Shown in pieces: positions 2,503-20,092 of a stretch of DNA of 23,378 bases. Both the position numbers and the translations under genes were made by a program. This DNA comes from a virus. Positions within the stretch are counted from its first letter, which is position 1. Each line of letters begins with the position of its first letter. The DNA is taken from the IMG/VR virus record IMGVR_UViG_3300034521_000095, positions 1 to 23,378 of that record; one strand, written 5' to 3'. Under the pieces are notes generated by a model. It saw nothing but the letters and a program-made list of their open reading frames with translations, was not told where the DNA came from and searched no databases.

Positions 2503-3240
2503 ATGACTACACCAAACCCACTGGCGCCGGTAAAGGGTGCCACCACCACGCTCTGGATTTATTCCGGATCGGGTAACCCGTTCGCCAACCCGGTATCGGA
2601 TGTTGACTGGACACGCCTGGCGAAGATTAAAGACCTGCAGCCCGGCGAACTGACCGCAGAATCAAACGATGACACCTATCTGGATGATGCGGATGCTGAC
2701 TGGACGTCCACTTCGCAGGGCCAGAAATCGGCGGGGGAGGCCAGTTTTACGCTGGCCTGGAAACCTGCCGAGAGCGGGCAGCAGGATCTGGTTCGCTGGT
2801 TTGATGACGGTACCGTGCTGGTGTACAAAATCAAATACCCGAATGGCGCCATCGATGTTTTCCGTGGCTGGGTAAGCAGCCTGGGTAAAACGGTGACGGC
2901 AAAAGACACCATTACCCGTTCTGTCAAAATCAGCAACAACGGCAAACCAGGCCTTGCTGAAGACACTGCTGCTGCAGTGATCGACGTAACCGGCGTTAGC
3001 CTGGATAAAGCGACCACCACCGTTGCGGTTGCTGCCACCACCACGCTAAATGTCACCGTGGCGCCTGCCAGTGCGAGCGATCAATCTTTCCTAGCCACCA
3101 CCACTGATGCAGGTAAAGCCACGGTGGCTGTCGCCGGCACGGTGCTGACGGTCACCGGCATTGCCGCCGGAACCGCCGACATTATCGTGATGACCAATGA
3201 CGGGTTGTTTGTCGCGACCTGTAAAGTCACCGTTTCCTGA
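2503..3240 (+). CDS. V: Major tail tube protein gpV with C-terminal Ig-like domain
   Basis: A 245-residue protein (246 in lambda) that builds the tail tube. Residues 1 to about 155 form the tube domain (WTRLAKIKDLQPGELTAES and WFDDGTVLVYKIKYPNGAIDVFRGWVSS segments). Residues about 158-245 are a bacterial Ig-like (BIG2) domain with the usual VTGVSLDK opening and an Ala/Thr/Val-rich beta pattern. In lambda this domain decorates the tube surface and is dispensable. GAGGA lies upstream of the ATG. A hairpin resembling the one after E follows the stop. Confidence 0.95.
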   Translation: MTTPNPLAPVKGATTTLWIYSGSGNPFANPVSDVDWTRLAKIKDLQPGELTAESNDDTYLDDADADWTSTSQGQKSAGEASFTLAWKPAESGQQDLVRWFDDGTVLVYKIKYPNGAIDVFRGWVSSLGKTVTAKDTITRSVKISNNGKPGLAEDTAAAVIDVTGVSLDKATTTVAVAATTTLNVTVAPASASDQSFLATTTDAGKATVAVAGTVLTVTGIAAGTADIIVMTNDGLFVATCKVTVS

Positions 3241-7611: not shown

Positions 7612-8322
7612 ATGCGTCAGAAAATTATCGACGACATTATGGCGCATGCTGCTGCTGAATATCCGCGCGAATGCTGCGGCGTAGTGGTGCAAAAAAGCAG
7701 GGTGCAGCGGTACATTCCCTGCCGTAATCTGGCAACCGATCCGACAGAGCATTTCCACCTGTCACCGGAGGATTACGCCGCTGCCGAAGACTGGGGTACG
7801 GTGATTGCCATTGTCCACAGCCACCCTGACGCAACGACACAGCCGAGCGAACTGGATAAAGCGCAATGTGATGCAACGCTCTTACCCTGGCACATCGTGA
7901 GCTGGCCGGATGGGGATCTGCGTACCATCCAGCCGCGCGGGGAACTACCACTGCTGGAACGCCCGTTTGTGCTCGGTCATTTCGATTGCTGGGGGCTGGT
8001 GATGAGCTACTTCAGGCAGACGCATGGTATCGAACTGACGGATTACCGCGTTGATTATCCCTGGTGGGAAGACAGTTACCCCGAAAACTTCTACCACGAT
8101 TGCTGGTATGAATGTGGATTCCGTGAATTCAGTGGCGTACCGCAGCCAGGTGATATGGTTATCATGCAGGTGCAGTCCAACAAGTGGAATCATGCCGGGA
8201 TCCTGCTCGAAGGTAACATGTTACTCCACCATCTATATGGCCATCTGAGTCAACGTGTGCCTTATGGTGGATACTGGCAGGAACGGACAATTAAGGTTCT
8301 ACGGTATAAGGATCTTTTTTAA
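7612..8322 (+). CDS. K: Tail assembly protein gpK, JAMM plus NlpC/P60 two-domain protein
   Basis: A 236-residue protein needed to form the lambda tail tip. The N-terminal domain is a JAB1/MPN-type metallopeptidase: Glu20, then His69-x-His71-x7-Ser79-x2-Asp82 is a complete JAMM zinc motif. The C-terminal domain (about 117-236) is NlpC/P60-like, with Cys126 in HFDCWGLV and His194 in NHAGILL as the likely catalytic pair, so a cell-wall-cutting activity is plausible. AGGAG sits five bases before the ATG. An intrinsic terminator begins at the stop codon, and the next gene rightwards is convergent. Confidence 0.94.
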   Translation: MRQKIIDDIMAHAAAEYPRECCGVVVQKSRVQRYIPCRNLATDPTEHFHLSPEDYAAAEDWGTVIAIVHSHPDATTQPSELDKAQCDATLLPWHIVSWPDGDLRTIQPRGELPLLERPFVLGHFDCWGLVMSYFRQTHGIELTDYRVDYPWWEDSYPENFYHDCWYECGFREFSGVPQPGDMVIMQVQSNKWNHAGILLEGNMLLHHLYGHLSQRVPYGGYWQERTIKVLRYKDLF

Positions 8323-8343
8323 GCCCACATAAGGTGGGCTTTT
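8322..8343 (+). terminator. Intrinsic terminator after gpK
   Basis: AGCCCAC (8322-8328), loop, GTGGGCT (8334-8340) followed by TTT overlaps the last base of the K stop. On the other strand no T-run follows the stem, so it works rightwards. It lies within the late tail unit, so J expression needs antitermination or a separate promoter. Confidence 0.75.
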
Positions 8344-8352
8344 ACTGTGACG

Positions 8353-8787
8353 CTATTTCTTGGGAATCTCAACCATGAATCCGTTCACGTCCCAGCTTGA
8401 TTCCCAAATGTTGTAACCTAGGCTTTTTAGGCGGGAGAATGTAGCCTTAAACACAGCTTCAAAATCATCATCGCTCAAGCCTTCAAGGTCTAAGTCGCTA
8501 AGGCTGATATGGAATGTAGTGTGCCCAATACGGATCTTCTCGTTAATGACGGAAAATGTCCGTTTGAAAATTATCCCTGACAGCTCATCCTTCGCGCGAC
8601 TTACGATAAGTAGGGCTTCTTCAGCTGAAACTAATTCATCTACCGGCATTTCGCTTAAGAAACTAGCATCAAGACGCTGAACAATTTCTGCATTCATGGA
8701 GCGATTATTAGACTTAGCTGCTTCCTCAATTTGTTCTTTCAATTCAATAGGAAGCCTGATTCTAAGCTGTGGATCTTCTCTGCTCAT
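8353..8787 (-). CDS. Mnt/Arc-type ribbon-helix-helix repressor
   Basis: A 144-residue protein. Residues 1-45 (SREDPQLRIRLPIELKEQI, then NNRSMNAEIVQRLD) closely follow P22 Mnt and Arc. The beta strand that reads the operator in Mnt (Arg2, His6, Asn8, Arg10, Met not counted) is here Arg2, Gln6, Arg8, Arg10. The remaining 100 residues are not Mnt-like, and Mnt is only about 82 long, so the C-terminal part is an unrecognised alpha/beta domain. Its promoter carries an operator with the Mnt core in the spacer. The gene diverges from a small Arc-like gene that precedes an antirepressor, as in P22 immI. The name mnt is withheld because the C-terminus differs. Confidence 0.85.
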   Translation of the reverse strand: MSREDPQLRIRLPIELKEQIEEAAKSNNRSMNAEIVQRLDASFLSEMPVDELVSAEEALLIVSRAKDELSGIIFKRTFSVINEKIRIGHTTFHISLSDLDLEGLSDDDFEAVFKATFSRLKSLGYNIWESSWDVNGFMVEIPKK

Positions 8788-8823
8788 TTGCTGGCTTGAC
8801 CTCTAAAAATTCACAATTTGTAA

Positions 8824-8852
8824 ATTATGCCCCACGGTGGGGTTGACTTCAA
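8824..8852 (-). promoter_or_regulatory. Leftward promoter of the Mnt-like gene
   Basis: Read on the minus strand: TTGAAG (-35, 8852-8847), 17-base spacer, CATAAT (-10, 8829-8824). The spacer is filled by operator copy 1, so a bound repressor would directly control this promoter. Its -35 overlaps the -35 of the rightward promoter by two bases. Confidence 0.65.
8830..8842. promoter_or_regulatory. Operator copy 1, CCCCACGGTGGGG
   Basis: Perfect 6+1+6 palindrome. Its central nine bases CCACGGTGG are identical to the core of the P22 Mnt operator as I recall it. It sits between -10 and -35 of the leftward promoter. Confidence 0.8.
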
Positions 8853-8871
8853 TGACGCACGGTGTGACACT
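8843..8871 (+). promoter_or_regulatory. Rightward promoter of the Arc-like and antirepressor genes
   Basis: TTGACT (-35, 8843-8848), 17-base spacer ending in an extended -10 TGT, then GACACT (-10, 8866-8871). The degenerate operator copy 2 lies in the spacer and reaches the -10. The predicted start point falls at operator copy 3. Arrangement parallels P22 Pant, whose Arc operator also lies between -35 and -10. Confidence 0.55.
8855..8867. promoter_or_regulatory. Operator copy 2, degenerate
   Basis: ACGCACGGTGTGA keeps the CACGGTG centre of copies 1 and 3 and most outer symmetry. Its centre is 25 bp from copy 1 and 24 bp from copy 3. It lies in the spacer of the rightward promoter. Confidence 0.6.
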
Positions 8872-8878
8872 TTATGTG

Positions 8879-8891
8879 CCCCACGGTGGGG
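8879..8891. promoter_or_regulatory. Operator copy 3, CCCCACGGTGGGG
   Basis: Identical to copy 1; the palindrome extends one more pair to GCCCCACGGTGGGGC (8878-8892). It covers the predicted start point of the rightward transcript, just upstream of AAGGAG. Confidence 0.8.
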
Positions 8892-8905
8892 CTTAAGGAG
8901 ATGAA

Positions 8906-9073
8906 ATGCAAAAAGCGAAAGATATGTACCAGCGCAAAATTCGCATTCCGGAGGATGTTCGTGAGGCGATTGAAAGGAATGGCGGGGAAGAATGTCGTCA
9001 GTTCAATACCGAACTGATTTACCAACTGAGAAAGGCATATGGTTTGACAGGAGAAAAAAGTGCGCAGGCTTAA
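8906..9073 (+). CDS. Arc-like ribbon-helix-helix repressor, 55 residues
   Basis: A small gene easily missed by length cut-offs. ATG 8906 has AAGGAG five bases upstream and the frame ends with TAA at 9071-9073. The product begins MQKAKDMYQRKIRIPEDVRE and continues with IERNGGEECRQFNTELIYQL. This is the full ribbon-helix-helix pattern: a basic beta strand (QRKIRIP), helix A, turn, and helix B with the FNTELIYQL signature that corresponds to Arc SVNSEIYQRV. P22 Arc is 53 residues. It heads the rightward transcript leading to the antirepressor, the position and size of arc in P22. The ATG at 8901 opens a different frame with no family match. Confidence 0.82.
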   Translation: MQKAKDMYQRKIRIPEDVREAIERNGGEECRQFNTELIYQLRKAYGLTGEKSAQA

Positions 9074-9080
9074 ATTCAGT

Positions 9081-9113
9081 GAAGCCCCAACTAATTGCGA
9101 TAGCCGGGGCTTC
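9081..9113. promoter_or_regulatory. Hairpin in the Arc-like/antirepressor gap
   Basis: GAAGCCCC (9081-9088) and GGGGCTTC (9106-9113) are a perfect eight-base inverted repeat around a 17-base loop. It lies between the Arc-like stop and the antirepressor ribosome site AAGGAAAT. No T-run directly follows on either strand. In P22 this gap encodes the antisense RNA sar that limits Ant synthesis, so a similar RNA-level control is possible but not shown. Confidence 0.5.
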
Positions 9114-9146
9114 TTATCGAACAAATCCCGCGAAGGAAATATCGAC

Positions 9147-9728
9147 ATGAATAGTGTAACCAAAACAGAGCTTAAATTCCAAGGTGTATCTTTCCAGACC
9201 ATCTACGATATTGATGGAATTTGGTTGAGCGCAAATCAGATCGGTTTTGCGCTTCAGTATGCAGACGATAAGGCTGTACAGCGCATACATGCTAGGCATT
9301 GTGATGAATTTACAGAAAAAATGACAAGGGTGGTCAAGTTGACCACCCCTGGTGGAAATCAGGAAACTCGGGTTTTTTCTCTACGTGGCGCACACATGGT
9401 CGCTATGTTTGCCAGAACTCCGGTTGCTAAAGAATTCCGACGCTGGGTTTTAGATATTCTGGATCGTGAGGTTTCTATAAACATTCCAGCAACAAAGATG
9501 CTCAGCGATCGTGAAATCCACGCCCACAATGCAAACGCAATGTTCGATTATTTCGAGGTTATGTGTGAAGCATGGTTTAACCAGATAGAACCAGCTTTGA
9601 GGGCAATAGAGTCACCTTTGGCTGGTCGCCTTCATGATCGTTTTAATGATGGGGCGGCCTTCATATACATGATTAAGGAATATGCTGATCAACAACTACA
9701 ACAGGGAGAACGACCGAGGATTTATTGA
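9147..9728 (+). CDS. Bro-N domain phage antirepressor
   Basis: A 193-residue protein. I start it at ATG 9147 (MNSVTKTELKFQGVSFQTI), with AAGGAAA eight to ten bases upstream, because the longer open frame from 9060 would overlap the Arc-like gene and lacks a ribosome site. Residues about 10-110 are a Bro-N domain: DIDGIWLSANQIGFALQYA, a VVKLTTPGGNQETRVFSLRG stretch, and VAKEFRRWVLDIL. This domain binds DNA or partner proteins in phage antirepressors and baculovirus BRO proteins. The C-terminal part (110-193) is unassigned. Not similar by eye to P22 Ant itself, so it is an analogue in the ant position. Likely role: inactivation of a prophage repressor when Mnt/Arc-like control is lost. Confidence 0.8.
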   Translation: MNSVTKTELKFQGVSFQTIYDIDGIWLSANQIGFALQYADDKAVQRIHARHCDEFTEKMTRVVKLTTPGGNQETRVFSLRGAHMVAMFARTPVAKEFRRWVLDILDREVSINIPATKMLSDREIHAHNANAMFDYFEVMCEAWFNQIEPALRAIESPLAGRLHDRFNDGAAFIYMIKEYADQQLQQGERPRIY

Positions 9729-9740
9729 ATTTGCTTAAAT

Positions 9741-9775
9741 GCAAAAAGAAAAGCCGATAGTTCGAGCTATCGGCT
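9741..9775 (-). terminator. Leftward-facing intrinsic terminator between the two antirepressor genes
   Basis: AGCCGATAG (9752-9760) and CTATCGGCT (9767-9775) form a perfect nine-pair stem. On the plus strand no T-run follows, but on the minus strand the stem is followed by TTTTCTTTTTGC. It is thus best read as a terminator for a leftward RNA, though no leftward gene lies to its right until beyond the att region. Confidence 0.6.
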
Positions 9776-9804
9776 ATCCATGAAACCGTCATAAGGACCA
9801 CTTA

Positions 9805-10548
9805 ATGACTTTATCAAATTTAGCATCAAAGGGTAGCGTTGTCACCGAGAAAACCATTGACAGTCAGTACCTGCTGGAGATGGTGAATGCCGCGCGAAAG
9901 CAGTGCGGTGAGCCGGTTGTCCGAAATAACAAGTTCATTGAGAAAGTTGTAGATGAGCTTGATGGTGAGACCTACACAAAAAGTGTAGGTCGTAAAAATG
10001 GCCAAGACATTGAAGTAATTATAATGTCTATCAAGCAAGCCCTCCGCGTAGCAGCTCGTGAATCGAAAGCAGTTCGACGTTCTCTGGTTGATAAGTTGGA
10101 AGATATGCAGGCTATTCAGATTTCAGCGCAAAATAGCTCGGGTCTTCCTGAATATCGACGTGCAAAGGCTGAGCAGTTGAAAGCTCTGGCGCTGGAGAAA
10201 AATATCGCCTCGGCTCGCGAGTTGATGTCAATGTTCCCGAGACTTGGTGAATCAGCCAACCAGGTGATCGTTGCAACGCTCGTTAATCCACTGCTTGGGC
10301 ACGAGATCATGCCTTTGCCGTTGATTGATCAGCACTACTCCACAGCTGGCGAAGTTGCTGCTGAGATCGGCTGTTCTGCCAATAAGGTTGGTCGCTTGGC
10401 AAACAAGCACAATCTGAAAACAGAGCAATACGGGAAATTCTTCCTCGACAAGTCGAAACATTCCGATAAACAGGTTGAGGTGTTTCGCTACAACTCTGAA
10501 GGCGTCAAGGCATTACGACATTTGCTCCAAGGAGCTAGCGTGGCCTGA
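9805..10548 (+). CDS. Second antirepressor-like or regulatory phage protein
   Basis: A 247-residue protein with AAGGA eight bases before its ATG. Residues about 18-55 (IDSQYLLEMVNAARKQCGEPVVRNNKFIEKVVDEL) form a domain seen at the N-terminus of many phage antirepressor-type proteins. Residues about 180-205 (YSTAGEVAAEIGCSANKVGRLANKHNL, read as two parts) look like a winged or plain helix-turn-helix, followed by a short beta region and RYNSEGVKALRHLL. It follows the Bro-N gene in the same direction and ends before a rightward terminator. The precise target is unknown; I infer a regulatory role from the domains and the neighbours. Confidence 0.6.
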   Translation: MTLSNLASKGSVVTEKTIDSQYLLEMVNAARKQCGEPVVRNNKFIEKVVDELDGETYTKSVGRKNGQDIEVIIMSIKQALRVAARESKAVRRSLVDKLEDMQAIQISAQNSSGLPEYRRAKAEQLKALALEKNIASARELMSMFPRLGESANQVIVATLVNPLLGHEIMPLPLIDQHYSTAGEVAAEIGCSANKVGRLANKHNLKTEQYGKFFLDKSKHSDKQVEVFRYNSEGVKALRHLLQGASVA

Positions 10549-10584
10549 TCAGGCTACAGTTCAAGTATTCATCGTATTACTCAC

Positions 10585-10608
10585 AACCCGCTTAACTGCG
10601 GGTTTTGT
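10585..10608 (+). terminator. Intrinsic terminator after the second antirepressor-like gene
   Basis: AACCCGC (10585-10591), loop TTAACT, GCGGGTT (10598-10604), then TTGT. It ends the antirepressor transcript before the lipoprotein gene. Confidence 0.7.
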
Positions 10609-10610
10609 CA

Positions 10611-10640
10611 TTGCTAGTTCCCTGATATTCTTTTGTAAAA
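10611..10640 (+). promoter_or_regulatory. Possible promoter of the lipoprotein gene
   Basis: TTGCTA (10611-10616) and TGTAAA (10635-10640) are 18 bases apart, directly after a terminator and before a gene that has its own terminator. This is the layout of an independently expressed moron. The match is modest. Confidence 0.3.
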
Positions 10641-10662: not shown

Positions 10663-11001
10663 ATGAAAAAGGCTGTCATATGGACATTGCTCTTACTCTC
10701 TGGATGTTCAAGCATGCAGGATTTGAGATCAGAAGCTCCATCTAATTCTTATAAATCTTCCAAGCAAGTTGACATCATAGCAAACTGCATCCTTACTGGC
10801 TGGCAACAACAAAGCCAGAAATACGGAAGTGTGTTCATACAGCCATATGAAAATGGCAAAACGGTTTATACGCAGTCTCAGCTTGAGATGGCTGATATAA
10901 ATAGAGATGGTGAACTGACCACGATAGAGTTTCGCCATCAGGGGGGCTTGTTCTCATATCGACTTAACAGTCGGACAGGTGTGATAGAACAATGCCTTTA
11001 A
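10663..11001 (+). CDS. Phage-encoded lipoprotein with an EF-hand-like loop
   Basis: A 112-residue protein. Lys-Lys, a hydrophobic core (AVIWTLLLL) and LLSGC give a signal peptidase II site with Cys15 as the lipidated residue; the mature protein would be about 98 residues attached to a membrane. The next residues are Ser-Ser-Met, without Asp at +2, so outer-membrane sorting is expected. DINRDGELTTIE (78-89) fits the canonical 12-residue calcium-binding EF-hand loop at positions 1, 3, 5, 6, 8 and 12. Cys42 and Cys111 could form a disulphide. Flanked by terminators on both sides, it looks like a lysogenic-conversion gene. I do not recognise the family; a role such as superinfection exclusion is only a guess. 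Confidence 0.7.
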   Translation: MKKAVIWTLLLLSGCSSMQDLRSEAPSNSYKSSKQVDIIANCILTGWQQQSQKYGSVFIQPYENGKTVYTQSQLEMADINRDGELTTIEFRHQGGLFSYRLNSRTGVIEQCL

Positions 11002-11045: not shown

Positions 11046-11651
11046 ATGAAAGAAGTAATGGCAAGAATTGAACTTGGAGGAGTTTTAGGTAAAGTTTTTG
11101 GTAAATATCACAATAGATTAATAAGTAGAACAGGTGAAGCAGCAATCGCATTGAGTAAAACAATCCCTGGATTTGAAAGCTACATGGTTAGCAGCAAACG
11201 ACGAGGATTGACCTTTGCTATATTCAAAGGAAAGAAGAATGTTGGTATAGACGAAATGGGGTTCCCAATTGATGGAGATATTGTTCGAATTATCCCAGTA
11301 ATCATGGGTAGCAAGCGAGCAGGACTCCTGCAAACAATATTAGGTGCTGTGCTTATTACAACGGCAATTTTTGTTTCAGGAGGCATAGGTGCAGCGTTTA
11401 CAGCTGGTGGATTAACTGGTTTTGCTGCAGCAACTGGTGCCTCGTTAGTTCTTGGCGGAATTGTTCAAATGCTATCCCCACAGCCAGCAGGACTTGCCAG
11501 CAAACAGGATGCCGAAAATCGGGCATCGTATGCATTCGGTGGTGTAACTAACACTGCAGCTCAGGGTAATCCAGTTCCGCTTCTATACGGACGCAGGCGT
11601 ATTGGTGGGGCGATCATCTCTGCTGGTATATACGTCGAAGACCAGCAATAA
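11046..11651 (+). CDS. I: Tail assembly protein gpI
   Basis: A 201-residue protein (223 in lambda) required for tail-tip formation together with K and J and not found in the mature virion. The central Gly/Ala-rich hydrophobic region (about residues 92-146, GLLQTILGAVLI to GASLVLGGIVQML) and the C-terminal AQGNPVPLLYGRRRIGGAIIS match the lambda I family. The first 90 residues are diverged and their coding sequence is clearly AT-richer than that of K or J, like the inserted block before it. An ATG at 11061 is an alternative start. Intrinsic terminators lie on both sides of the gene. Confidence 0.88.
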   Translation: MKEVMARIELGGVLGKVFGKYHNRLISRTGEAAIALSKTIPGFESYMVSSKRRGLTFAIFKGKKNVGIDEMGFPIDGDIVRIIPVIMGSKRAGLLQTILGAVLITTAIFVSGGIGAAFTAGGLTGFAAATGASLVLGGIVQMLSPQPAGLASKQDAENRASYAFGGVTNTAAQGNPVPLLYGRRRIGGAIISAGIYVEDQQ

Positions 11652-17661: not shown

Positions 17662-17678
17662 GCTTTAACTCCTCTTTA

Positions 17679-17694
17679 CTGTGTTTAATGCCAG
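17679..17694. promoter_or_regulatory. Degenerate LexA-like site
   Basis: CTGT-N8-CCAG differs from the LexA rule CTGT-N8-ACAG by one base. It lies seven bases from the perfect box and between it and the DinI-like gene, next to AGTATA (17693-17698), the reverse complement of a good -10 (TATACT) for that gene. Confidence 0.4.
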
Positions 17695-17698
17695 TATA

Positions 17699-17718
17699 TA
17701 CTGTATATATAAACAGTA
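17699..17718. promoter_or_regulatory. LexA box between the DinI-like gene and umuD
   Basis: TACTGTATATATAAACAGTA contains CTGT-N8-ACAG (17701-17716) and matches the 20-base LexA consensus with its alternating TA centre almost completely. It overlaps TATAAA at 17717-17722, a likely -10 for umuD. It should repress both divergent transcripts. Confidence 0.92.
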
Positions 17719-17738
17719 TAAATGTGAGTGAGTTTATT

Positions 17739-18158
17739 ATGAAGTTTTATTCACCAGCTGAGTTGCGCCAGATAGTTGCGCTTCCTTTATTTAGTGATCT
17801 TGTTCCATGCGGTTTTCCCTCCCCGGCGCATGATTACGTTGAACAACGCATTGATCTCAATGAACTATTAGTCCAGCACCCATGTGCAACATACTTCGTG
17901 AAGTCGTCCGGCGATTCTATGACTGGAGCGGGGATCGGGAATGGCGATTTGCTGGTCGTCGACCGTTCCAGAAAGCCTGCACATGGAGATATTGTTATCG
18001 CTGCCATTGATGGCGAGTTCACGGTTAAACGTCTTCAGTTACATCCAATACTTATGCTTGTTCCTGAAAACAGCTCCTATGCACCCATTATGATAAACAG
18101 CGAAGATACGCTGGATATCTTTGGGGTGGTGACGTTTATCGTGAAAGCGGCAAGCTGA
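17739..18158 (+). CDS. umuD: UmuD, Pol V accessory subunit precursor
   Basis: A 139-residue protein, the same length as E. coli UmuD. RecA filaments trigger self-cleavage between Cys24 and Gly25 (PCGFPSP), giving UmuD', which joins UmuC to form Pol V. The Ser-Lys catalytic pair is intact: Ser60 in SSGDSM and Lys97 in FTVKRL. The open frame extends far upstream, but ATG 17739 gives the E. coli-type N-terminus ([13 protein letters not shown]); a GTG at 17724 would add five residues. umuC begins one base after the stop, so the two are an operon. Confidence 0.95.
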
Positions 18159-18159
18159 C

Positions 18160-19428
18160 ATGTTTGCCCTGGTTGATGTGAACTCGGTTTATGCCAGTTG
18201 TGAGACTGCATTCCGGCCAGATCTGAAAGGCAGGCCGGTAGTTGTTCTGTCAAATAACGATGGCTGTGTTATTGCCCGTAACACTGAAGCCAAAAGAGCT
18301 GGTGTAAAAATGGGTGATCCGTATTTCAGGCAGAAGGACTTATTCCGTCGATATGGTGTGGTTTGTTTCAGCAGCAATTACGAGCTTTATGCAGATATGT
18401 CCAGCAGAGTAATGTCCACGCTGGAGGCAATGTCTCCCCGTTGCGAAATATATTCAATTGATGAAGCCTTCTGTGACCTCACTGGTGTAAGAAACTGCCG
18501 GGTTCTGCAGGAGTTTGGGCAGGAATTAAAAGATGCCGTTTATCAAAATACGGGTCTGGCGGTTGGCGTTGGTATTGCCCAGACAAAGACGCTGGCGAAA
18601 CTGGCGAATCATGCCGCCAAAAAGTGGCAGAGACAAACGGGTGGGGTGGTGGACTTATCTAACCAGGAACGCCAGCGCAAACTGATGGCTGCACTGCCGG
18701 TTGATGAGGTCTGGGGAGTAGGGCGCCGTATCAGCAAAAAGCTGGAGGCTATGGGGATTAAAACGGTTCTGGATCTGGCTGATACTGATATTCGTTTTAT
18801 CCGGAAGCACTTCAATGTTGTCCTCGAAAGAACGGTGCGCGAACTGCGTGGCGAACCCTGTCTTGAACTGGAGGAATTTGCCCCCGTAAAGCAGGAAATT
18901 GTCTGTTCCAGATCATTCGGGGAACGTATTACGGATTATGACGCTATGCGACAGGCCATCTGCAGCTACGCATCGCGCGCCGCAGAAAAGTTACGTGGAG
19001 AGCATCAGTATTGCCGTTTCATATCTACTTTTGTCAAAACGTCACCCTTTGCGTTGAACGAACCGTACTACGGTAACAGCGCGTCGGTGAAGCTGCTCAC
19101 CCCGACACAGGACAGCCGGGATATCATTGCAGCAGCGACGCGGAATCTGGATGCAATATGGAAAGACGGGCACAGATATCAGAAAGCAGGGGTAATGCTG
19201 GGGGACTTCTTCAGTCAGGGCATCGCCCAGTTGAATCTGTTCGATGATAATGCGCCGCGCCGGGGTAGTGAGAAATTGATGGAAGTACTGGATCATTTGA
19301 ATGCAAAGGAAGGAAAGGGGGCGCTTTATTTCGCCGGACAGGGGATCCAGCAACAATGGGCGATGAAGAGAGAGATGCTTTCACCACGATACACGACCCG
19401 CTATGAGGACCTGCTTCAGGTTAAGTAA
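18160..19428 (+). CDS. umuC: UmuC, catalytic subunit of translesion DNA polymerase V
   Basis: A 422-residue Y-family polymerase, exactly the E. coli length. The metal ligands Asp6 (LVDVNS) and Asp101-Glu102 (YSIDEAF) are present, as are the palm and finger landmarks (SNNDGCVIARN, FSSNYELYADMS), the helix-hairpin-helix region (VWGVGRRISKKLEAMGI at 184-200) and a beta-clamp-binding QLNLF at 357-361. Nothing suggests decay. Its stop lies eight bases inside the convergent yedK. Confidence 0.97.
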   Translation: MFALVDVNSVYASCETAFRPDLKGRPVVVLSNNDGCVIARNTEAKRAGVKMGDPYFRQKDLFRRYGVVCFSSNYELYADMSSRVMSTLEAMSPRCEIYSIDEAFCDLTGVRNCRVLQEFGQELKDAVYQNTGLAVGVGIAQTKTLAKLANHAAKKWQRQTGGVVDLSNQERQRKLMAALPVDEVWGVGRRISKKLEAMGIKTVLDLADTDIRFIRKHFNVVLERTVRELRGEPCLELEEFAPVKQEIVCSRSFGERITDYDAMRQAICSYASRAAEKLRGEHQYCRFISTFVKTSPFALNEPYYGNSASVKLLTPTQDSRDIIAAATRNLDAIWKDGHRYQKAGVMLGDFFSQGIAQLNLFDDNAPRRGSEKLMEVLDHLNAKEGKGALYFAGQGIQQQWAMKREMLSPRYTTRYEDLLQVK

Positions 19429-20092
19429 CAGGCTTAATTAAATCTGCTCCCTGATTTTTCACATTCCCGACGTCACGTGTTACGGCATGCCATATAAATT
19501 TATCAGCCGACACGGAACCGTCAGCTACAATCTCCTCCGCTTCTTTCCCTCCAGTGTCCTGCCTCATCCATTCGCGAGCGGCTTCTGGTGACAGCACCAG
19601 TGGCCGCCTGTCGTGAATATCTACCAGTCCACTGTCGGCAGCAGCCGTCACTATCAGGAAACCTTCTGCCTCATCTCCACGTTCGAATGGTGTGCTGCCG
19701 ATCGCCGCCATAAAAATTGGCTGACCGTCTGCCCGGTGAATAAAGTAGGGCTGCTTCTTGTCCCCTTCCTTTTTCCACTCAAACCATCCATCAGCAAAGC
19801 AAATCGCGCGGCCATGCTGCCAGAGTGGTTTAAACATTCTGCTGGTGGCCGCAGTTTCAGACCGTGCGTTAATCAGCGGCGGTTTATCCCACCAACCGGG
19901 GGCGTATCCCCAGATAACTGGATCAAGATGCAACTGCTCATCACGTTCGCTCAGAAGCAGAACCTTTGTCCCTGGCGCTACGTTGAATCTTCCGATGGGT
20001 TCTGGATCGTATGGAATGTCGCGTTCTGATTCATTAGCGAGCAGGATAAGATAATCTTCACGCGTCATTGACTGTGCAAACCGTCCACACAT
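19421..20092 (-). CDS. yedK: YedK/HMCES-type SRAP protein (abasic-site DNA-protein crosslinker)
   Basis: A 223-residue protein that looks close to E. coli YedK over its whole length. SRAP proteins link covalently to abasic sites in single-stranded DNA through Cys2 after removal of Met1. All key residues are in place: Cys2 (MCGRF), Asn75 (LINARSET), Glu105 (WFEWKKEG) and His160 (VDIHDRRPL). GGAGG lies five bases before the ATG, and TATACT (minus strand, 20127-20122) is a plausible -10. It converges on umuC with an eight-base overlap of the 3' ends. Confidence 0.95.
   Translation of the reverse strand: MCGRFAQSMTREDYLILLANESERDIPYDPEPIGRFNVAPGTKVLLLSERDEQLHLDPVIWGYAPGWWDKPPLINARSETAATSRMFKPLWQHGRAICFADGWFEWKKEGDKKQPYFIHRADGQPIFMAAIGSTPFERGDEAEGFLIVTAAADSGLVDIHDRRPLVLSPEAAREWMRQDTGGKEAEEIVADGSVSADKFIWHAVTRDVGNVKNQGADLIKPVT

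What the first reader, a model, noticed from the sequence alone, without database searches (positions are those of the whole stretch)
8353..9728. A P22 immI-like mnt/arc/ant switch placed inside a lambda-type tail operon
A leftward Mnt-like repressor, a rightward 55-residue Arc-like repressor and a Bro-N antirepressor stand in the same order and orientation as mnt-arc-ant of P22, but between tail genes K and I. The antirepressor is of a different family from P22 Ant, and the Mnt-like protein carries 100 extra residues. The control logic thus appears kept while the effector was exchanged. Such a second immunity region in this position could let the lysogen answer to other phages or to other prophages.
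Basis: partly seen in the sequence, partly recalled or inferred. Interest (0 to 1): 0.75.

Follow-up and report, generated by a model that had tools for sequence, protein, structure and literature searches.

The report
P22-type antirepressor switch in tail operon
A phage that looks like lambda carries, between two tail genes, a complete second immunity switch of the kind known from Salmonella phage P22 (two small repressors, their DNA sites and an antisense RNA), driving different antirepressor proteins; related switches sit in the tail genes of many other enteric prophages, so it looks like a mobile module for phage-on-phage conflict.

Summary
Between lambda-type tail genes K and I lie a leftward Mnt-like repressor (8353-8787), a rightward Arc-like repressor (8906-9073), a Bro-N antirepressor (Ant1, 9147-9728) and a missed second antirepressor (Ant2, 9805-10548). 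Two further parts of P22 immI are present. Mnt-type operators CCCCACGGTGGGG sit at both predicted promoters (core CCACGGTGG as in P22 Omnt), with a third palindrome between the -35 and -10 of Pant. A sar-like antisense RNA covers the arc-ant junction on the minus strand (9145-9078). All three operators persist in all 38 distinct relatives that carry the middle palindrome. The RNA recurs in most other cassettes and covaries. The same control head drives either Bro-N or genuine P22_AR_N antirepressors, so effector exchange is visible by comparison. Relatives without the insert place it at about 8310-10629. P22's own immI also lies in its late operon, and such 'ant morons' are described in P22-like phages, so the kind is known; siphophage setting, swapped effector and second antirepressor make a new variant. 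Likely role: Mnt keeps Ant silent in the lysogen; an incoming phage briefly makes Ant to disarm resident repressors. That role is inferred.

The parts
7612..8322 (+). tail gene K (JAB + NlpC/P60), left neighbour of the insert
8321..8343 (+). terminator-like hairpin AAGCCCAC-loop-GTGGGCTT + TTTT after K
   Evidence: read directly from the sequence; inference
8353..8787 (-). Mnt-like ribbon-helix-helix repressor, 144 aa; RHH domain nearly invariant in close relatives, C-terminal alpha/beta domain swapped for other C-termini in some relatives
8824..8852 (-). predicted Pmnt (TTGAAG-N17-CATAAT), O1 in its spacer
   Evidence: conserved in relatives
8830..8842 (.). operator O1 CCCCACGGTGGGG
   Evidence: present in 38 of 38 distinct sequences carrying the O2 core
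8843..8871 (+). predicted Pant (TTGACT-N17-GACACT, TGT before the -10; TTGACA in most relatives)
   Evidence: by eye; not transcript-mapped
8853..8869 (.). palindrome O2 TGACGCACGGTGTGACA in the Pant spacer, where P22 has the Arc operator
   Evidence: nearly invariant; that the Arc-like protein binds it is inference
8879..8891 (.). operator O3 CCCCACGGTGGGG at the Pant start, where P22 has Omnt
   Evidence: kept while its distance from O2 varies over 21-24 nt
8906..9073 (+). Arc-like RHH repressor, 55 aa
9078..9145 (-). sar-like antisense RNA over the arc-ant1 junction (anti-SD hairpin + terminator-like hairpin)
9153..9182 (-). predicted Psar (TTGGAA-N18-TACACT); the -10 overlaps ant1 codons 3-4
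   Evidence: TA[CT]A[AC]T conserved in most relatives; confounded with coding
9147..9728 (+). Ant1: antirepressor with Bro-N N-domain and a weak P22_AR_C-like C-terminus
9805..10548 (+). Ant2: second antirepressor, phrog_1726, KilAC/Rha-like by weak fold matches
10585..10604 (+). terminator-like hairpin closing the cassette
10663..11001 (+). lipoprotein gene (phrog_914), present at K-I without the cassette in relatives: neighbour, not part of the switch
11046..11651 (+). tail gene I, right neighbour

Best explanation
It is an 'ant moron': an independently transcribed P22 immI-type second immunity region inserted in the K-I interval of a lambda-type tail operon. In the lysogen the Mnt-like protein, made leftward from Pmnt, binds O3 at the Pant start (and O1 within Pmnt, so it likely controls itself) and keeps arc, ant1 and ant2 silent. 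When the phage enters a cell without this repressor, Pant fires. Ant1 and Ant2 are made briefly and can inactivate CI-type repressors of resident prophages or of the phage itself. The Arc-like protein, probably at O2 between the -35 and -10 of Pant, and the sar-like antisense RNA that covers the ant1 ribosome site then shut the burst off. Shown here: homology, order, operators and their conservation, RNA conservation and covariation, insertion boundaries. Inferred: promoter activity, who binds which operator, targets of Ant1 and Ant2, benefit to the phage.
For: Arc-family hits for both repressors. Two perfect CCCCACGGTGGGG sites plus O2; all three present in 38 of 38 distinct relatives that carry the O2 core, with O1 and O2 nearly fixed and O3 kept despite a drifting distance. 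P22 has CCACGGTGG at the same place after the Pant -10 and the Arc site in the spacer. Rfam sar hits 9145-9078(-) over its full length, E 0.0032; the minus strand folds at -32.3 kcal/mol, z -6.3, in the P22 sar shape; the minus strand folds better than the plus strand in all 36 junctions, mean -30.4 vs -19.5. A model built on 14 sequences finds the RNA in most of 76 other loci, P22 included at E 5e-5; on those matches 18 of 23 pairs show changes on both sides, covariation score 0.349 vs 0.183 shuffled and at most 0.081 when slid (alignment fitted to the model). K and the lipoprotein gene are directly adjacent in L248 and others, so the insert is about 8310-10629. Nine carriers sampled all encode S24-type proteins of CI size; the two read in full are HTH + S24 proteins, so the switch is a second immunity region. 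In P22, Mnt represses arc/ant, sar pairs with ant mRNA and Ant complexes C2 (PMC11016777).
Against: No binding, transcript or phage data. The Arc-like protein is only at the Pfam cut-off and its PDB matches to Arc are weak. The sar-like hit is below Rfam's gathering score (33.1 vs 43) and the window copy has a weaker U-run (AATTT) than its relatives (TTTTT). Psar signals overlap coding sequence. The window is a fragment without its main immunity region, so the antirepressor target in this phage is unseen. Ant1 lacks the P22_AR_N domain.
Confidence: 0.85

Rival explanations
1. Induction relay: the cassette serves mainly to induce its own prophage under stress, as the LexA-controlled Gifsy antirepressors do.
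For: Antirepressors in Salmonella prophages do this (PMC3121763).
Against: No LexA box near the cassette; the window's only perfect LexA box is at 17699-17718. Two CI-type repressors read in full from relatives are HTH + S24 proteins, with an Ala-Gly in the linker by eye, the arrangement expected of RecA-cleavable repressors, so no relay is needed. Pant carries Mnt/Arc-type sites instead.
Confidence: 0.07
2. Late-operon throttle: the main selected effect is to set how much late transcription reads through into I and J, with antirepression secondary.
For: The P22 ant moron has been thought to affect readthrough into the tailspike gene (PMC2629481); the cassette sits just before I and J.
Against: Conserved intact Ant1 and Ant2 frames, conserved sar-like RNA over the ant1 start, and the variety of insertion points (V-H, H-M, L-K, K-I) do not fit a position-specific throttle.
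Confidence: 0.05
3. Decayed moron without function in this phage.
For: The window's U-run after the sar-like hairpin and the Pant -35 (TTGACT) are slightly weaker than in relatives.
Against: All four frames are open, all three operators are intact, and near-identical copies exist in another contig (L007, 97-100% protein identity over the cassette).
Confidence: 0.03

Closest known systems
P22 immI (mnt-arc-sar-ant), the 'ant moron' of P22-like phages
   Same: divergent mnt/arc, Mnt-type operator core CCACGGTGG right after the Pant -10, second palindrome in the Pant spacer, sar-like antisense RNA at the arc-ant junction, location in a late operon (PMC2629481)
   Different: Bro-N effector instead of P22_AR_N, a second antirepressor gene, an extra Mnt-type site in Pmnt, a longer Mnt C-terminus, siphophage tail operon between K and I
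SPN3UB and Erwinia phage Midgardsormr38 tail-operon cassettes
   Same: Arc(-)/Arc(+)/Ant/second-antirepressor order inside the tail operon between the major tail and tape-measure genes; SPN3UB also has the sar-like RNA
   Different: other repressor and operator classes, other insertion point; no sar match in Midgardsormr38 at E<=1
Gifsy antirepressors (GfoA/GftA) and N15 AntC
   Same: small phage antirepressors acting on CI-type repressors
   Different: those are LexA-controlled (PMC3121763); no LexA box here

Membership tests
P22 immI / ant moron | divergent mnt and arc genes encoding Arc-family RHH proteins, ant downstream of arc | tested here: met
P22 immI / ant moron | Mnt operator at the Pant start | tested here: met
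   by sequence and position only:
P22 immI / ant moron | Arc operator between -35 and -10 of Pant | tested here: inconclusive
   a near-invariant palindrome O2 lies there, but its sequence is unlike P22 Oarc and binding is untested
P22 immI / ant moron | sar antisense RNA at the arc-ant junction | tested here: met
   the window hit alone is below Rfam's gathering score
P22 immI / ant moron | Ant with P22_AR_N and P22_AR_C domains | tested here: not met
   Bro-N instead of P22_AR_N; P22_AR_C match 21.2 bits vs cut-off 22.4; some cassettes with the same head do have P22_AR_N
P22 immI / ant moron | independently promoted insert in the late operon with an empty site in relatives | tested here: met
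   insertion boundaries; promoters only predicted
P22 immI / ant moron | Ant inactivates the phage repressor and Mnt gives immI immunity | not testable with these tools
   needs bench work
LexA-controlled antirepressors (Gifsy, N15) | LexA box at the antirepressor promoter | tested here: not met
Bro-N / KilA-type phage antirepressors | Bro-N domain | tested here: met

The most novel reading that the evidence does not exclude
Tail-operon ant morons form a large modular family in which an antisense RNA (sar-like) and the antirepressor core stay constant while three parts are exchanged independently: the repressor-operator head (setting many immI immunity classes), the Ant N-domain (Bro-N or P22_AR_N) and the Ant C-terminus (setting which prophage repressor is hit). 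Together with Ant2 they would give each phage two swappable weapons against heteroimmune prophages.
Probability: 0.4. Interest if true: 0.7.

Novelty: new variant of a known kind. Interest (0 to 1): 0.5.

Why it matters
[quoted passage not shown] Finding the intact control circuit, antisense RNA included, in dozens of siphophage-type contigs, with related cassettes in podo-type and myo-type prophages and natural exchanges of repressor class and effector, turns that question into a comparative one: natural chimeras can be tested for which part decides the target. It also extends the described location of ant morons, reported for P22-like phages only between genes 16 and 9 (PMC2629481), to several tail-operon sites.

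Tried and rejected
Structure of the Mnt-like C-terminus: AlphaFold mean pLDDT 77 but no PDB match at E<=0.001; no function assigned. Ant2 has no Pfam hit; only PHROGs and weak fold matches to KilAC/Rha/antirepressor proteins (model pLDDT 69). phmmer of the Arc-like protein ranks TALE repeat proteins first: single repeats score at most 6 bits, so this is a summed-repeat artefact. RNAalifold on the plain MAFFT alignment found only 4 pairs because the alignment slips between hairpin variants; replaced by per-sequence folding and a covariance model. Ten paper searches found no description of immI/sar in siphophage tail operons; only open-licence papers are held, so absence is weak evidence. A SOS-controlled reading was rejected.

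Full report
OBSERVATION. The window is an IMG/VR virus record of 23,378 bases, a fragment. Between K (7612-8322) and I (11046-11651) lie, in order, a leftward 144-aa protein, a rightward 55-aa protein, a rightward Bro-N protein and a rightward 247-aa protein. Pfam Arc hits the first at E 6e-15 and the second at E 5e-4, exactly its gathering score; Bro-N hits the third at E 9e-10 with a P22_AR_C match just under cut-off; the fourth is phrog_1726, anti-repressor, E 8e-84. Fourteen of 19 members of the 55-aa family hit Pfam Arc. The leftward protein aligns with P22 Mnt over 83 residues at 30%, E 2e-12.

OPERATORS. Between the divergent starts stand CCCCACGGTGGGG at 8830-8842 and again at 8879-8891, with a third palindrome, TGACGCACGGTGTGACA, at 8853-8869. 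The 13-mer with up to two mismatches occurs nowhere else in the window; 9 of 100 shuffles reach two such matches, but both copies here are perfect. In P22 the order is TTGACA, Arc site, TATATT, then GGTCCACGGTGGACC (operator names from established P22 knowledge). Here it is TTGACT, O2, GACACT, then O3, whose core CCACGGTGG is the same and lies at the same distance within a base. A predicted leftward promoter (TTGAAG/CATAAT) has O1 in its spacer. Among 39 distinct relatives, 38 carry the O2 core; in all of these O1 and O3 are present, O1 at a fixed distance from O2 in all but one, and O3 at 21-24 nt from O2. O3 is kept while the spacing changes, which argues for selection on the site. The 39th (L046) is a divergent relative with a different palindrome. 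Cassettes with other Mnt-like N-termini show other palindromes, e.g. CTACAT-N-ATGTAG with MKGASLIAPFGLR.

ANTISENSE RNA. Rfam's sar model (P22 antisense RNA) matches 9145-9078 on the minus strand over its whole length, E 0.0032, 33 bits, below the 43-bit gathering score. That alone would be suggestive. The minus strand folds to -32.3 kcal/mol (z -6.3) in two hairpins like P22 sar (-30.2, z -5.8); a longer plus-strand stretch folds to -21.0. In 36 distinct arc-ant junctions the minus strand is the better folder every time, mean -30.4 vs -19.5. A covariance model from 14 sequences finds the RNA antisense at this junction in most of 76 other loci, with P22 at E 5e-5 and SPN3UB at E 1e-11. On those matches 18 of 23 pairs have changes on both sides; the covariation score is 0.349 against 0.183 in shuffles and at most 0.081 when slid; all six pairs of the 5' hairpin covary (this alignment is fitted to the model). 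On the unfitted alignment of the 14 training sequences the score is 0.205 vs 0.139, with 0 of 500 shuffles as high. A -10 like TA[CT]A[AC]T on the minus strand at ant1 codons 3-5 is kept in most relatives, but it also encodes protein.

EFFECTORS. The Bro-N domain of Ant1 is strongly conserved in 30 relatives while the C-terminus falls into several unrelated-looking types. Some cassettes with the same Mnt, Arc, operators and sar-like RNA carry P22_AR_N antirepressors instead (L006, L033, L039, L048, L057, L136). Effector exchange under a constant control head is therefore seen by comparison, not only supposed. The Mnt-like protein is itself modular: a near-invariant RHH domain is joined to different C-termini, giving total lengths from 76 to 152 aa in close relatives.

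PLACE. In L248 and others K is followed directly by the lipoprotein gene and I; window homology breaks at about 8309 and resumes at about 10630, so the insert is about 2.3 kb and coincides with the cassette. Of 80 close K loci, 5 have an empty K-I gap of 12-15 nt, 9 a lipoprotein homologue only, 60 other small inserts, 5 an ant cassette, and 1 lacked I within the locus: K-I is an insertion-rich interval. Related cassettes also lie at V-H, H-M and L-K (counts there include several loci from the same contigs), in a podo-type E. coli prophage and in a baseplate operon on a Klebsiella plasmid. P22 immI itself sits between late genes 16 and 9 and is called the 'ant moron' (PMC2629481); that paper notes morons at no other morphogenetic location in P22-like phages.

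MAIN REPRESSOR. The window lacks its main immunity region. Nine contigs carrying related cassettes each encode an S24-domain protein in an open frame of 220-276 codons. The two read in full (L336, L337) are HTH + S24 proteins with an Ala-Gly in the linker by eye. This fits a cassette that is a second immunity region beside a RecA-cleavable repressor, as in P22. No LexA box lies near Pant.

MECHANISM. From the anatomy and established P22 biology (Mnt represses ant; sar pairs with ant mRNA; Arc moderates ant and inhibits mnt; Ant complexes C2: PMC11016777): the prophage's Mnt-like protein keeps Pant off; an incoming phage makes a burst of Ant1 and Ant2 that can disarm resident CI-type repressors; Arc and sar-like RNA end the burst. 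P22 Ant acts on repressors of other phages, which supports cross-phage action (PMC3121763). For this phage each step after 'homologous parts in the same order' is inferred.

VERDICT. New variant of a known kind. The finding is real and stronger than first stated; its position is less strange than claimed. The antisense RNA, the second antirepressor, the exchange of effectors and repressor classes and the spread over tail operons are the parts that would interest a specialist.

Noticed in passing
17677-19428: A perfect LexA box (17699-17718) with a one-mismatch one beside it (17677-17696) stands before an S24 (UmuD-like) and an ImpB/MucB (UmuC-like) gene; an SRAP gene follows on the other strand (19421-20092)..
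   Followed up: partly
9752-9775 and 9325-9351: Leftward terminator-like hairpins after and inside ant1; a leftward RNA other than the sar-like one is possible.
   Followed up: no
L329 (Klebsiella plasmid NZ_CP142972.1, 39985-42173): An Arc/Arc/Ant/Bro-N cassette of the same order sits in a phage baseplate operon on a 236-kb conjugative plasmid.
   Followed up: partly
8353-8787 and relatives: Mnt-like proteins share an almost fixed RHH domain but carry several different C-terminal domains; function of these is unknown.
   Followed up: partly
2503-3240: Tail tube protein with a C-terminal Big_2 Ig-like domain.
   Followed up: no
L057-L060: Cassette of this class in a diverged phage placed between L and K rather than K and I.
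   Followed up: partly
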